Positions 36,248 through 41,652 of a stretch of DNA of 64,000 bases are shown here, one piece after another. The stretch comes from Granulimonas faecalis. GTDB lineage: Bacteria > Actinomycetota > Coriobacteriia > Coriobacteriales > Atopobiaceae. Numbering within the stretch: position 1 is the stretch's first letter; each line of letters starts with the position of its first letter. The notes below the pieces were generated by a model, which saw nothing but the letters and a program-made list of their open reading frames with translations, had not been told where the DNA came from and did not search any database. The position numbers were made by a program, and so were the translations under genes. The DNA is taken from the NCBI RefSeq assembly GCF_022834715.1, contig NZ_BQKC01000001.1, positions 1,214,501-1,278,500 on the forward strand, written 5' to 3'.

Positions 36248-37087
36248 ATGTACCACATCGTTGCAAGCGACATGGACGAGACGTTCCTCGGCCACAACAA
36301 GAGACCCACCCAGTCAAACCTTGATGCCGTGGCCGCCATGGGGAAGCTGGGGGTCCGTTTTGTGGTGGCCACCGGCCGCCCCTACTTCAGCGTCCAGGGC
36401 ATCCTGGAAGAGGTGGGCACAAAGGGCGACCCTGACTCCTACACCATCACCCTCAACGGCGGCTACGTGTGCGCCAACGACGGCACGGTGGTTGCCGCGC
36501 ACCCGCTTGATGCCGCCGTGACCGAGCGCCTGCGCGCCTTTGGGGAGGAGCGGGGCCTCTGCGGCCACATGTACCTAGAGGGGCGCACCTTGGCCATGAG
36601 CCTTAACGACGGCGAGCGGGAGTTTTTGCGCGGCCGTATGGAAGTGGTTCCGTCCACGTGGGAGGAAGCGGCTTCGCTGGACGAGCCTGTGTACAAGATC
36701 CTGTTCGAGAACACCGACCTTGACGCCCTCCATGTCCTCCGCGACGAGGCGCAAGACGCCCTCGGCGACCTCGTGGACGCCGTAGAGCCGGTGTTCTCGA
36801 GCGATCGCTACGTGGAGTTCAACCCCGCAGGCGTGGGCAAAGGCTCGGGCCTCGCAGAAATCGCCGCCACCCTCGGCGTGCCCATGGACGAGACGGTGGC
36901 CTTGGGCGACTCGGTGAACGACCTCTCCATGCTCGAGGTGGCAGGCCTTCCCCTCGTGGTCTCCAACGTGAGCGAGCTAGCGAGGCCGCTTCTGCCAAAG
37001 GGCTGCCGCATCCTGCGGTCGAGCTGCGACGACGGCTGCATGCCCGAAGTGCTGGACGACTACCTCAAGCCGTCGATGGACCAGTAA
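36248..37087 (+). CDS. HAD superfamily (Cof-type) sugar phosphatase
   Basis: 279-residue HAD IIB hydrolase. Motif I is ASDMDETFL, motif II ATGRP, motif III Lys in GKGSGLAEIA, and motif IV LGDSVNDLSML, all in order, with the large type-IIB cap between motifs II and III. It would dephosphorylate a phosphosugar or related metabolite such as FMN or PLP. The ATG at 36248 follows GAAGGAAAG; TAGAAT near 36207 is a plausible -10. Confidence 0.92.
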   Translation: MYHIVASDMDETFLGHNKRPTQSNLDAVAAMGKLGVRFVVATGRPYFSVQGILEEVGTKGDPDSYTITLNGGYVCANDGTVVAAHPLDAAVTERLRAFGEERGLCGHMYLEGRTLAMSLNDGEREFLRGRMEVVPSTWEEAASLDEPVYKILFENTDLDALHVLRDEAQDALGDLVDAVEPVFSSDRYVEFNPAGVGKGSGLAEIAATLGVPMDETVALGDSVNDLSMLEVAGLPLVVSNVSELARPLLPKGCRILRSSCDDGCMPEVLDDYLKPSMDQ

Positions 37088-37099
37088 GCCCGACCGCTC

Positions 37100-37759
37100 T
37101 TAGACGAGGCGCCCTTCCTCCATGGTGAGGATCCGGTCGCACTTGTCGGCCATGGTCATGTCATGGGTGACCATCACAAGGGTCTTGCCGGCATCGCGGG
37201 TGGCGCGAAGAAGCGAGTCCATGACGATGTTGGCCATCCTCCTGTCAAGGGAGCCGGTGGGCTCGTCGGCAAGAATGAGGTCGCCGGGCTTGAGCATGGC
37301 CCGGGACATGGCCACGCGCTGTTTCTCCCCTCCGGAAAGCTCGCTCACCACAGAGTCCAGCTTGTCCCCCACGCCAAAACGCCCCAGCATCTCCTGGATA
37401 TGGGACAGCTTCTCCTTCTTTGCCAGCTTGGTGTGGTAGAGGGCCAGAAGCAGGTTGTCGCGCACCGTCTTGGAGTCGATGAGGGCAAACGACTGGAAGA
37501 GGTAGTTGATGGCGCTGCGGCGAAGGAGCATGGCGCTGCGGCTGTTGATGGGCGGGTAGGCCTTTCCCAGTAGGCAGACCGAGCCCGACGTGGGGGTGTC
37601 GAGCAGCCCCAAGATATTGAGCAGCGTGGTCTTTCCGCAGCCTGACGGCCCGGTGACGGCCACCGCCTCCCCTGCGGCAATGCTGAGGCTGAGCCCCGAG
37701 AGGACCCTGTGCTCGCCAAAGCACTTGACAAGGTCTTTTACCTGGATAGAGGAGTCCAT
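37100..37759 (-). CDS. ABC transporter ATPase of the lactococcin-972-like locus
   Basis: 219-residue ABC ATPase of the MacB/LolD shape: Walker A GPSGCGKT near residue 36, signature LSGGEKQR near 140, Walker B LILADEPTG and the switch His in THDMT. It belongs to the subgroup found with lactococcin-972-type bacteriocins (TIGR03608-like). Two ATGs overlap or touch the permease stop (ATGATGG); I chose 37759, where AAAGGAG is 5 nt away, over 37762. It is the last gene of the bacteriocin locus and would energise export or self-protection. Confidence 0.88.
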   Translation of the reverse strand: MDSSIQVKDLVKCFGEHRVLSGLSLSIAAGEAVAVTGPSGCGKTTLLNILGLLDTPTSGSVCLLGKAYPPINSRSAMLLRRSAINYLFQSFALIDSKTVRDNLLLALYHTKLAKKEKLSHIQEMLGRFGVGDKLDSVVSELSGGEKQRVAMSRAMLKPGDLILADEPTGSLDRRMANIVMDSLLRATRDAGKTLVMVTHDMTMADKCDRILTMEEGRLV

Positions 37760-39918
37760 CATTGCTCCTTTGACACGGTTTCCAACACGACCGCCACAGA
37801 CCTTCGGCGGGCCGCCAGCACGATGAGCAGGTTGGAGGCAACGAGCAGCGCGCCGCCCATGAGAAGGCCTGCAGTGGACTGGGCGAGGGCGCTCACGGCC
37901 ACGCCCGTAAGCGTGGCGATGTTCACAAAGAGGAACTCCCTCCGGTAAATGGTCCACGGGCCAAAGCCGAGCACGCACTTGACCGACACCTCCCGGGCGC
38001 TCACCCGGTTGACCACCTCGACGATGCAAAGGACCATGACGGCGACGATGATCACAAGCATGGCAAGGACGATGCCGAACAAGAAAAAGAGCTCCTCGAA
38101 TAACTTTTTCATGCCGTCGATGAAGTTGCCCACGGTGGCAAATCGCAGGTCCAAGCCACTGTTCAAGGCGACAGAGTCGTTGTCCAAAAGCTGGGAGGCG
38201 GCTTGGCCATCCAGTTTCAAGTAGCTGTTGAGGCCGCTGGCTACCAGGCTCTCCGACTCAAAGGGCACCATGTTCTCGGCGCTCAGCACGGCGATGACCA
38301 TGCCCGAGGTCTCTGCAGGCTCCCCCTCATGGGTGGCCCAGGTGAACAGCCCCTTGGCCCCGTCGTAGGGAACGAACTCCGTGGAAGGGTGCTTCATGTA
38401 CTCCGTGACGATATTGGAGTCCCACGGCTTTCGAGACGCGAGAAGGTACGATTTCAGAGCCTCGGTCTCGCCCGCGCTCAGCGAACTCGGCAGCAGGTAC
38501 ACGCGCACCCCCTGCCTCACCTTGGCAAGGACGTCGGGCGAAAGCTCCACGCCGGCCTGCTCGAGATAGGAGGGAGAAGCTGCCAGATACCAGAAAGGGA
38601 CGGGGCGCACCGCGGCATCGGGCAGGTCGCCCTCAATATCGACCTCAGGGGTATAGGAGACATTTGACAGGTAGACGCCCTCATCGTCCTCGTGGGCGGC
38701 ATACCAGTCGTAGACGTCCTTGGCCTGGGCCATCGCATCGCCCACAAAGTGCTGTCCGTCCACGGAAAGGTCCTTGACCACCCACCAGTCCTCGTAGGCG
38801 CTCCACACAGAGCGGGTGCGGGCAAGGTCTGTGTACATGGCAAGCGGCTGATTGATATACAAAGAGCCGCCAAAGACCGCAGCCAAGGTGACAAGGTACA
38901 CGCCGGCCGCCAATACGTAGAATCCCCGCCGCGAGTAGCGGGCGCAGATGGCGTCCACCGGCTTGACAAGCAGGATGGGCAGGGCGGCAAGGGCCAACGA
39001 GAGCAAAACCGCCACGACCGGCGCGGCCACGATTGTGCCCACAAAGGCCGCCAACGGGGCGGTGAGGCCAAAGCCGCTCAACATGAGGGCGGTGCCTGCC
39101 AAGCATACCGGCACCACGGCAAGCAGCTGCGCCAGCTGGGGCCTGAACAGCCGAAGCAAAAATCCCCCCGCGCCCCATCCCAGCATCAGGCGCACGCCGA
39201 GGGTCTTGAGCTCCAAAAGAGAGCGGGCCACCAAAAGAAGGGAAAGCCCGAGGGCGAGCAGAAGGAAGGCCCCGGCGGAGAAGAATGCGAAAAGGCCTGC
39301 CATCGGCACAGAGCCGAAGGTTTTTTCTGTCAGCGCCTCCCCACTGCACCCCGTGGCAGTCGCGACATCGGCCAGAAGCGCCTGGAACTCCTCGTCGCTC
39401 AGCCCCAACACCGTGCAGGAGCTGCCCACAACTGCAGCAGAATCCAGTTTTTGAACCCTAAAGTATGCCCCGGCGCGAATGCTTGGCAGCTCTTGCACCC
39501 GGTCGAAGGCGTTGTTGCCAAAGCCCGCATAGGCGCCGGGCGCGCCTGAGACCACCGCGCTCACCACAGCATCGTCCACGACGGGAGTGCCCAATACGTC
39601 CAAGGGCTCCACGGCGGAAACCGCAGCAGAAGAGGCCAAAACGCCAAAGGTATAGAGAGTGGCCCCCGACTGCTGCACGACCGAGTCGTGGCTCACCACG
39701 GTCATGGGATGGTCTTGGGCAAACGCCTGGACCGCACCCACCAAGCGCTCCCTGCTCTCATCGGAGAGCTGCATGGTGTAGAGAGTGGGGCGGTCGGCGA
39801 GCCACGAGCCCGCCGACCGCATCACCAAGGCCTCCAAAACCCCCTTGGCGCAGAGCGTGCCGACAGCAGCAAGGCAAACAATGACGACCAAGCTGACTAC
39901 CGAGTACCATCTCTTCAC
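37759..39918 (-). CDS. Bacteriocin-associated integral membrane protein (putative immunity/export permease)
   Basis: 719-residue protein with 7-8 membrane segments: one at residues ~7-27, four between ~207 and ~355, and two or three after ~612. Two large extracytoplasmic domains (~30-205 and ~360-605) lie between them. This layout fits the lactococcin-972-associated 7TM immunity family (TIGR01654-like) and resembles MacB/FtsX permeases. A GTG at 39918 has GAGAGG upstream. It lies 61 nt after the bacteriocin gene, and its stop overlaps the ATPase start. Immunity versus export cannot be separated from sequence. Confidence 0.8.
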   Translation of the reverse strand: MKRWYSVVSLVVIVCLAAVGTLCAKGVLEALVMRSAGSWLADRPTLYTMQLSDESRERLVGAVQAFAQDHPMTVVSHDSVVQQSGATLYTFGVLASSAAVSAVEPLDVLGTPVVDDAVVSAVVSGAPGAYAGFGNNAFDRVQELPSIRAGAYFRVQKLDSAAVVGSSCTVLGLSDEEFQALLADVATATGCSGEALTEKTFGSVPMAGLFAFFSAGAFLLLALGLSLLLVARSLLELKTLGVRLMLGWGAGGFLLRLFRPQLAQLLAVVPVCLAGTALMLSGFGLTAPLAAFVGTIVAAPVVAVLLSLALAALPILLVKPVDAICARYSRRGFYVLAAGVYLVTLAAVFGGSLYINQPLAMYTDLARTRSVWSAYEDWWVVKDLSVDGQHFVGDAMAQAKDVYDWYAAHEDDEGVYLSNVSYTPEVDIEGDLPDAAVRPVPFWYLAASPSYLEQAGVELSPDVLAKVRQGVRVYLLPSSLSAGETEALKSYLLASRKPWDSNIVTEYMKHPSTEFVPYDGAKGLFTWATHEGEPAETSGMVIAVLSAENMVPFESESLVASGLNSYLKLDGQAASQLLDNDSVALNSGLDLRFATVGNFIDGMKKLFEELFFLFGIVLAMLVIIVAVMVLCIVEVVNRVSAREVSVKCVLGFGPWTIYRREFLFVNIATLTGVAVSALAQSTAGLLMGGALLVASNLLIVLAARRRSVAVVLETVSKEQ

Positions 39919-39979
39919 TGGATACCCTCTCGTAGATGTAAAGGGAAACTAGGCCAAGGGGATTAAACCAGGAGCCGCC

Positions 39980-40270
39980 TTACCCCCGGCAGTTCCAGTA
40001 GGCCTGAATTGTTGACGGGCCAACAAACCCCCATGCCTGCGACAGTGTGCCGGGCTGCTGCCAGCCAGAGCTGTATCCATTAACAGAAGAGCAATGCTCG
40101 TATTTTTGAGAGTTGCAATCAGAGAAGCCAAAGACACCGGCGTTGCGGCCGTAGTTCCAGTAAACTCCGGTGCCTTTGTAGTAGACGGTCCGGGCCAACG
40201 CGGCGCCGGAGACCCCGGCGCAGAGAGCGGTGCAGAGCGCGGCGGCAACGAGCGATTTCTTGACCTTCAT
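39980..40270 (-). CDS. Lactococcin-972-family bacteriocin precursor
   Basis: 96-residue secreted peptide. Residues 1-26 are a Sec signal (MKVKKSLVAAALCTALC...GAALA) with predicted cleavage after ALA. The ~70-residue mature part is aromatic and Gly/Ser-rich: GTGVYWNYGRNAG, HCSSVNGYSSGW and a C-terminal AYWNCRG. The W-x-YG start, an H-x-SSV stretch and the aromatic-Asn C-terminus agree with the lactococcin 972 family, whose founder binds lipid II and blocks septation. It has three cysteines in the mature part, unlike the Cys-free founder. GGAGGT precedes the ATG. The membrane protein and ABC ATPase follow. Confidence 0.82.
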   Translation of the reverse strand: MKVKKSLVAAALCTALCAGVSGAALARTVYYKGTGVYWNYGRNAGVFGFSDCNSQKYEHCSSVNGYSSGWQQPGTLSQAWGFVGPSTIQAYWNCRG

Positions 40271-40292
40271 AATCGACCTCCGTTCGAGGGCC

Positions 40293-40322
40293 TATTGGTA
40301 TCTCAGATACTAATCCCCAATA
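40293..40322 (-). promoter_or_regulatory. Nested palindromes upstream of the bacteriocin gene
   Basis: GGTATC-TCA-GATACT (40297-40311) lies inside TATTGG...CCAATA (40293-40298 and 40317-40322), 23-52 nt upstream of the bacteriocin ATG. The inner motif recurs at 12903 and 16453. Confidence 0.4.
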
Positions 40323-40463
40323 CCGCAGGCACAGCCCTCGTGGATGCCGACGATTTACCTATTTAACTGGAAGGGGCCCATGACCAAAAAGAGCGGAGCC
40401 CCGAGCTTTCCCTCAGGTGGGTGGCCCCTCGAGTGCAACTGGGCCGCTCCGGCCGAACACAGT

Positions 40464-40537
40464 GCGACCGGGCCGCAGGTCCCGGGGCATCTGAGCGGCA
40501 AAGCCGCGAATTGCCCCAGGACCTGCGGCCCGGTCGC
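40464..40537. repeat. 74-nt three-tier palindrome
   Basis: Outer perfect 19-bp arms (40464-40482 / 40519-40537), then GGGGCA/TGCCCC (6 bp), then GCGGC-AAA-GCCGC at the tip. It begins 27 nt after the glycosyltransferase stop. No T-run follows on either strand, so it is a structured or REP-like element rather than an ordinary terminator. Confidence 0.7.
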
Positions 40538-40563
40538 GTCAAATGAAACAGCCGAAGCGCCGC

Positions 40564-41601
40564 CTAGTTGAACTTGACCACCTTCTGGATGATGCGGTAC
40601 AGGCCGATGGAGGTCTTCTCCCCCATCTTGGTGGGGAGATTGGCACCGATGCCGATAAGGCCCTTGCGGCAGTAGTTGTACATGCGCTTGTCGTACTGCT
40701 TGAAGTACTCCCAGAGGGCGTCGCAGTTGAGGCGCGCGTTGGGGACGTCGGACAGGCGCGCGAAGATGGAGCACACGGCCATCATGAGGTTCATGTAGTC
40801 GAGCATGTACGTGCGGAGCTTGGTGCTCTCGACGTCGTCGTAGAGGTGGTAGGCGTCCATCATGATGCGGGTGACCCGCAGCTGCTGGTCGATGCGGCCC
40901 GCCATGACCTTCTCGTTGACCGACTGGTCCTCGCGGCCGATGAAGTAGCGGTAGAGGTCGACGTCCAGGTAGTACAGCGTCTTGCAGCGGGGCAGCGGCA
41001 CGTAGGCGTAGATGTTGTCCACGTAGAACGTGTGCGCCGGCATGGGGATGCCGCCGTCGCGTAGGATGTCGGTGCGGTAGCACAGGGCGTGCATGAGCAG
41101 GTTCTGGTCGTAGCCGAAGTGCCCGATCTTCTCCCAGGTGAGGACCTTGTTGCGACGCAGGGCGAACCGGTAGTCGATGACGTTCTGCTTGCCGTCCTCC
41201 ACGTGCTCGTAGACGTAGTTGGTGACGACGAGGTCCACGCGCACGTCGTAGTCGATGAAGCTGCGGAGGGTCTTCATCAGGGAGTCGAGGGCGTCGCCGT
41301 CGTACCAGTCGTCGGAGTCGCACACCTTGAAGTAGACGCCGTCGGCCGCCTCGAGCGCGGAGAGGACGGCCATGCCGTGGCCGCCGTTCTCCTGGTGGAC
41401 GGCCTTCACGAGGTCGGGGTAGCGGGCCTCCCATGCCTTGGCCTTGGCGAAGGTGTCGTCCTTGGTGGAGCCGTCGTCGACGACGATGACCTGGATGTCG
41501 TCGGAGAAGTGGGCCCCCTCGAGGATCGAGGAGATCGCGTGGTCCATGTACTCGGCCGAGTTGTAGCAGGGAATGCCTACGGAAAGCGTCTTGGTGCTCA
41601 T
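40564..41601 (-). CDS. Family 2 glycosyltransferase
   Basis: 345-residue GT2 enzyme with a GT-A fold: LSVGIPCYNSAEYM at the start, VIVVDDGSTKDD with the nucleotide-binding aspartates, and a DSDDWYDGDAL segment carrying the DxD-type metal site. The donor is unknown; the neighbouring glf suggests transfer of galactofuranose or assembly of a cell-wall glycan. ATG 41601 begins at the domain; the in-frame ATG at 41619 has a slightly better spaced AGGAA and may be the true start. It is co-directional with glf, 51 nt downstream. Confidence 0.88.
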   Translation of the reverse strand: MSTKTLSVGIPCYNSAEYMDHAISSILEGAHFSDDIQVIVVDDGSTKDDTFAKAKAWEARYPDLVKAVHQENGGHGMAVLSALEAADGVYFKVCDSDDWYDGDALDSLMKTLRSFIDYDVRVDLVVTNYVYEHVEDGKQNVIDYRFALRRNKVLTWEKIGHFGYDQNLLMHALCYRTDILRDGGIPMPAHTFYVDNIYAYVPLPRCKTLYYLDVDLYRYFIGREDQSVNEKVMAGRIDQQLRVTRIMMDAYHLYDDVESTKLRTYMLDYMNLMMAVCSIFARLSDVPNARLNCDALWEYFKQYDKRMYNYCRKGLIGIGANLPTKMGEKTSIGLYRIIQKVVKFN

Positions 41602-41652
41602 CGGTGGGTGCGTCCTCATCTGTCGGGTTCCTGACGGGTCGTGGTGCCCCCG

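What the first reader, a model, noticed from the sequence alone, without database searches (positions are those of the whole stretch)
37100..40270. Lactococcin-972-like bacteriocin locus in a probable coriobacterium
A 96-aa precursor with a Sec signal and an aromatic, W-x-YG...AYWN mature part is followed by a 719-aa multi-TM protein and an ABC ATPase. This three-gene order is the hallmark of lactococcin 972-type loci, known mainly from Firmicutes and Streptomyces-like actinobacteria. The founder binds lipid II and inhibits septum formation. The mature peptide has three cysteines, unlike the founder, so a disulfide-bonded variant is possible.
Basis: partly seen in the sequence, partly recalled or inferred. 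Interest (0 to 1): 0.72.

Follow-up and report, generated by a model that had tools for sequence, protein, structure and literature searches.

The report
Divergent lactococcin-972-type bacteriocin locus
An actinobacterium related to the mouth and gut genus Olsenella carries a three-gene locus that most likely makes a small secreted antibacterial protein of the lactococcin 972 kind, plus an ABC transporter that most likely protects the maker; the toxin is so changed that standard databases miss it.

Summary
In detail: on the minus strand lie a 96-aa Sec precursor (A, 40270-39980), a 719-aa permease (B, 39918-37759) and an ABC ATPase (C, 37762-37100). A scores below the curated cut-offs for lactococcin 972 (TIGR01653 22.4 vs 32.1 bits; PF09683 13.7 vs 22), but the locus is of that type: C's best NCBIfam match is TIGR03608, and B joins the TIGR01654/DUF1430 family by profile comparison and through a Macrococcus plasmid relative. 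B has the two-half plan of type VII ABC permeases (YbbP, BceB, LolE), which fits target-protection immunity better than export. A is under strong purifying selection. B survives without A in six genomes (dN/dS 0.09 in the clean pair), as expected of immunity. The three cysteines are real; C68 is invariant and C26 fixed in Atopobiaceae, so C26-C68 is the likely bond. Unexpected: in 10 of 11 loci, but not in the window, A's leader is a 12-14-nt complement of B's ribosome-binding site, with compensatory changes, suggesting an RNA panhandle around the toxin gene. Activity, lipid II binding and immunity are inferred. Verdict: a real, divergent coriobacterial variant of a known bacteriocin type; moderate interest.

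The parts
39980..40270 (-). Gene A: 96-aa bacteriocin precursor (stop included)
   Evidence: TIGR01653 22.4 bits E 1.1e-4, below cut-off; 10 orthologous sequences, dN/dS 0.05-0.15
40193..40270 (-). Sec signal peptide, 26 aa, MKVKKSLVAAALCTALCAGVSGAALA
   Evidence: sequence: basic n-region, hydrophobic core, ALA before the invariant TVYY; no lipobox
39983..40192 (-). Mature peptide, 70 aa, 7.83 kDa, pI 8.9, Cys 26/34/68
   Evidence: alignment A4
37759..39918 (-). Gene B: 719-aa permease, two type VII halves (TM1-ECD-TM2-4 twice); presumed immunity
   Evidence: profile match to pBL1/DUF1430 proteins; fold match YbbP Z 17.1, BceB 15.1; model mean pLDDT 57.5
37100..37762 (-). Gene C: ABC ATPase; Walker A, signature, Walker B and H-loop intact
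   Evidence: TIGR03608 top hit E 1.8e-70; motifs
40277..40281 (-). Shine-Dalgarno GGAGG of A
   Evidence: sequence
40285..40340 (-). Leader hairpin just upstream of A's ribosome-binding site; stands where the relatives have the panhandle arm
   Evidence: z only -1.55, weak
39919..39979 (-). 61-nt A-B spacer; holds B's ribosome-binding region GAGAGGGTATCCAGT

Best explanation
A divergent lactococcin-972-type bacteriocin locus. A is translated with a Sec signal, exported and cleaved after ALA (inferred from sequence). The mature 70-aa aromatic peptide acts outside the cell on related bacteria, most likely on a cell-wall target such as lipid II (inferred from the founder). B and C form a type VII ABC transporter: B is one chain carrying both permease halves with two extracellular domains, C is the ATPase pair. 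It most likely protects the producer by pulling the peptide off its target or the membrane, in the manner proposed for BceAB, and not by exporting it (inferred: A has its own Sec signal, and B is kept where A is lost). C26 and C68 probably form a bond tying the C-terminal strand to the body (inferred).
For: Gene order A-B-C as in pBL1 and other plasmids. A: TIGR01653 is the only NCBIfam family matched; relatives L061, L062 and the Macrococcus peptide also match it first; the Macrococcus peptide is 43% identical over the mature part and is followed by a permease with 85 bits to TIGR01654 and an ATPase best matched by TIGR03608. B: hhalign of window group plus Macrococcus against pBL1-type B, E 6e-16 to 1e-18. 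C: TIGR03608 57 bits ahead of the next family. Fold: YbbP Z 17.1, BceB Z 15.1-11.4, LolE 10.5, with the N- and C-terminal halves each matching a half-permease. Selection on A. B without A retained: G022/G026 dN/dS 0.088 at dS 0.41; A remnant LEPYWNCR upstream of B in G077/G078. BceAB target protection: PMC7038271; family background: PMC11796350, PMC12345188.
Against: A is below both curated cut-offs; on the mature part alone the evidence is marginal (hhalign P 0.0035; 15 of 2000 shuffles score as high; no PDB hit by profile). The GG motif and first invariant His of the family are missing. AlphaFold gave no usable peptide model (pLDDT 38.5), so the beta-sandwich is not shown. No activity data exist; B/C function is unproven in any lactococcin 972 locus (PMC11796350).
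Confidence: 0.78

Rival explanations
1. BC exports A, as the TIGR03608 name 'putative bacteriocin export ABC transporter' suggests.
For: Family name; A and BC co-occur in one operon.
Against: A has a full Sec signal; type VII transporters generally act on the outer face of the membrane; B is kept under purifying selection without A.
Confidence: 0.1
2. A is not a toxin but a secreted signal or an extracellular partner of the BC transporter, for example a sensor or substrate-delivery protein.
For: Very strong conservation of the mature part across genera is more than many toxins show; YbbP-type transporters can have extracellular partners (PMC12646458).
Against: Recurrent loss and disruption of A with BC kept is typical of costly toxins; the locus is homologous to proven bacteriocin loci (PMC11796350, PMC12345188).
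Confidence: 0.1
3. BC is a general resistance device against other lipid-II-cycle antimicrobials and A is only a historic neighbour.
For: B matches BceB in fold; six genomes have BC without A.
Against: 11 of 17 full-length B genes of this clade have A directly upstream, and A itself is under selection.
Confidence: 0.1

Closest known systems
Lactococcin 972 locus of pBL1 (lcn972-orf2-orf3; TIGR01653, TIGR01654/DUF1430, TIGR03608)
   Same: Sec precursor, then two-half permease, then ABC ATPase, same strand and order
   Different: Peptide not detectably similar by BLAST (E 9); the founder has no cysteine; no GG motif or first His here; ends YWNCRG
Unannotated peptide on Macrococcoides caseolyticum plasmid p19Msa1047-4 (L063)
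   Same: 40-43% identical over the mature part, ends AYWNCR, same three-gene order
   Different: One Cys only; start position reads ATA, so it may be silent
Mediterrocin of Mediterraneibacter gnavus and streptococcin B of pneumococcus
   Same: Proven active lactococcin-972-like peptides with a permease and ABC protein beside them; mediterrocin is only 18% identical to the founder (PMC12345188, PMC11796350)
   Different: Annotated as family members; Bacillota hosts
BceAB and YbbAP type VII ABC transporters
   Same: Permease fold and ATPase class
   Different: B has two directly fused 4-TM halves; no two-component or hydrolase gene next to it

Membership tests
Lactococcin 972 peptide family (TIGR01653) | Score above curated cut-off 32.1 bits | tested here: not met
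   22.4 bits, E 1.1e-4
Lactococcin 972 peptide family (PF09683) | Score above gathering cut-off 22 bits | tested here: not met
   13.7 bits precursor, 14.8 mature
Lactococcin 972 peptide family | Sec signal followed by a mature peptide of about 65-75 aa | tested here: met
   absence of modification not testable
Lactococcin 972 peptide family | Beta-sandwich fold as in 2LGN | tested here: inconclusive
   model pLDDT 38.5
Lactococcin 972 locus type | Peptide gene followed by TIGR01654/DUF1430 permease and TIGR03608 ATPase | tested here: inconclusive
   Order seen directly and homology shown by profile and bridge, but the curated scores fall short: TIGR01654 12.3 of 189 bits, TIGR03608 236.6 of 254.85. 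Homologous locus, divergent members.
Lactococcin 972 locus type | Antibacterial activity through lipid II and the septum | not testable with these tools
   needs bench work
Type VII ABC transporters | TM1, large extracytoplasmic domain, TM2-4 unit with cytosolic ATPase | tested here: met
   model of moderate confidence
BceAB peptide-resistance transporters | 10-TM permease with a BceRS-type two-component partner | tested here: not met
   about 8 TM predicted; no two-component genes adjacent

The most novel reading that the evidence does not exclude
Atopobiaceae loci of this type control toxin and immunity through a long-range RNA panhandle: A's leader pairs perfectly with B's ribosome-binding site around the whole toxin ORF, so that translation of the two is mutually gated (in the style of hok fold-back inhibition). 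The window's copy has lost or replaced this element.
Probability: 0.4. Interest if true: 0.6.

Novelty: new variant of a known kind. Interest (0 to 1): 0.42.

Why it matters
It shows a lactococcin-972-type weapon in Atopobiaceae that curated models miss, in relatives of mouth and gut genera. The six genomes with B but not A give natural material to test the open question whether B and C of this family are immunity or export genes, which no study has verified (PMC11796350). The leader-to-RBS complementarity offers a testable control mechanism for toxin and immunity genes.

Tried and rejected
AlphaFold of the mature peptide: no usable model. PDB sequence search with the peptide profile and with the B profile: nothing relevant. 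Phage records: no relative of B. Literature on lactococcin 972 with Coriobacteria: no paper in the library. Lipoprotein reading of the signal (LCAG): no lipobox fit. Regulon-motif reading of GCACCGCCATTG: outside the locus it occurs at about chance level. Conserved ATA start in G051/G098 as a new start codon: not needed, an in-frame ATG lies 45-50 nt upstream. Panhandle in the window, Macrococcus, L061 and pBL1: not supported. Rfam over the locus: nothing. Sigma-70 promoter scan upstream of A: none.

Full report
Observation. The window holds three ORFs on the minus strand: A 40270-39980, B 39918-37759, C 37762-37100. A encodes MKVKKSLVAAALCTALCAGVSGAALA|RTVYYKGTGVYWNYGRNAGVFGFSDCNSQKYEHCSSVNGYSSGWQQPGTLSQAWGFVGPSTIQAYWNCRG. 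The mature part is 70 aa, 7.83 kDa, pI 8.9, Cys at 26, 34, 68. B and C overlap by ATGA. C has intact Walker A, signature, Walker B and H-loop. Neighbours are a HAD-type hydrolase (36248-37087, +) and a glycosyltransferase-like gene (40564-41619, -, named from its sequence only).

Family tests. Against NCBIfam, A matches only TIGR01653 (22.4 bits, cut-off 32.1); B matches only TIGR01654, weakly (12.3 of 189 bits); C matches TIGR03608 best (236.6 of 254.85), next family 179.6. Pfam gives PF09683 13.7 of 22 bits. By the letter of the curated rules A is therefore not a member. The mature part alone is marginal: 11.6 bits to TIGR01653, hhalign P 0.0035 aligned end to end with nine annotated or family-model-matched relatives, 15 of 2000 shuffles as good. 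The case for the locus rests on B, C, gene order and bridges.

Bridges. The window peptide is 43% identical over the mature part to an unannotated ORF on Macrococcoides plasmid p19Msa1047-4. That locus has a permease with 85 bits to TIGR01654 (E 4e-24) and an ATPase with TIGR03608 as top hit. The window group's B matches this permease at 1.7e-40 over 635 columns, and the joint profile matches the pBL1-type permeases at 6e-16 to 1e-18. Peptides L061 and L062 (same order, other family) link further. L051, above the TIGR01653 cut-off in the same class, also ends in AYWNC.

Distribution. The close hits are Olsenella, Atopobium and other Coriobacteriales records; Olsenella belongs to Atopobiaceae. 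In 140 genomes of the window's family, 19 have a match to B. Eleven have an A sequence directly upstream: G000 (window), G036, G038, G039, G048, G051, G057, G098, G116, G117, G120. Six have B without A: G022, G026, G049, G077, G078, G104; G077 and G078 keep a C-terminal scrap LEPYWNCR at the right place. Of the eleven, five have an intact start and signal (window, G036, G048, G057, G117). G038 and G039 share a TGA in the signal; G116 and G120 have -1 and +1 changes in an A-tract of the signal; G051 and G098 read ATA at the start position but have an in-frame ATG upstream.

Selection. Pairs of mature A show near-saturated synonymous change and dN/dS near 0.05-0.15; G051/G098 0.03; the stop-bearing pair G038/G039 0.83 (5 non-synonymous, 2 synonymous codons), as expected for relaxed constraint but from few changes. 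B in the A-less pair G022/G026 has dN/dS 0.088 at dS 0.41. Thus B has a use without A. That fits immunity to a neighbour's peptide better than export of one's own; it parallels pneumococcal strains that lack the functional peptide but keep scbBC (PMC11796350).

B as a machine. The B model (mean pLDDT 57.5) shows TM1, domain 45-206, TM2-4, TM5, domain 379-595, TM6-8. Simple hydropathy gives eight TM in four other family proteins, the pBL1 founder among them, and nine segments in the window's B at a loose threshold, the extra one (281-299) falling in a loop of the model. Best structural matches are YbbP (Z 17.1), BceB (15.1 to 11.4) and LolE (10.5); the two halves each match half-permeases. Type VII systems work by mechanotransmission (PMC12646458), and BceAB is thought to free lipid-II-cycle targets from peptide drugs (PMC7038271). 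I infer target protection for BC.

Cysteines. C68 is invariant in all relatives including single-Cys ones (L061, Macrococcus); C26 is fixed in Atopobiaceae; C34 and the SSC position vary; G048 has only C26 and C68. So C26-C68 is the natural pair, and the single-Cys relatives could use C68 between chains. The actinobacterial sequences L064 and L065 (above and just below the TIGR01653 cut-off) also carry two cysteines, so cysteines in the family are not unique to this clade.

Leader-RBS complementarity. In 10 of 11 loci the A leader (about -32 to -19) holds GCACCGCCATTG(C) or a variant, and the 15-18 nt before B's start hold its reverse complement, which includes B's Shine-Dalgarno GGCGGTG. Predicted pairing probability is near 1.0 within a 420-nt RNA that encloses A. 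Concerted changes support pairing: A-U to G-C at the outer end (G038/G039), U-A to C-G plus a C-G to U-G wobble in G048, and inner extensions in G051/G098 and G048. The sequence pair is nearly confined to this locus in each genome. The window has neither arm; it has a local leader hairpin of low significance. Whether the complementarity acts in RNA or as a DNA inverted repeat is not shown. Rows are related, so the number of independent events is small.

Shown: ORFs, homology of B and C, conservation and selection, loss pattern, complementarity. Inferred: secretion, bacteriocin activity, lipid II target, immunity by target protection, the disulfide, RNA control.

Noticed in passing
L002, L003, L031, L004-L007, L035, L037, L038 (A leader and A-B spacer): 12-14-nt inverted complement between the leader of A and the ribosome-binding site of B in 10 loci, with compensatory changes; absent in the window.
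   Followed up: partly
L004, L005 and L006, 5' end of A: A-tract in the signal sequence of three sister species reads A5GA, A6 and A8, putting two of the three out of frame; possible slippage or phase variation.
   Followed up: partly
L003 and L031, signal of A: Shared in-frame TGA at codon 9 in two Olsenella-type genomes; the peptide differs more between them (dS 0.045) than gene B does (dS 0.005).
   Followed up: partly
L035, L037 and L063, start of A: ATA stands at the expected start position; no in-frame ATG/GTG/TTG upstream in the Macrococcus plasmid, where the gene is unannotated.
   Followed up: partly
window 40430-40560: 26-bp near-perfect GC-rich hairpin between the glycosyltransferase-like gene and A, -95.7 kcal/mol, z -9.7, single copy in the genome; probably the upstream gene's terminator.
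   Followed up: partly
L008 1501-1767: Second lactococcin-972-like peptide in G051 with an in-frame TAG and cysteines (GGTWTYGNWLF...YWYRIC), likely a pseudogene.
   Followed up: no
pBL1 ORF2 and relatives (L063, L066-L068): TIGR01654 is named a 7-TM family, but hydropathy gives eight TM in the pBL1 protein and three relatives, in the two-half type VII plan.
   Followed up: partly
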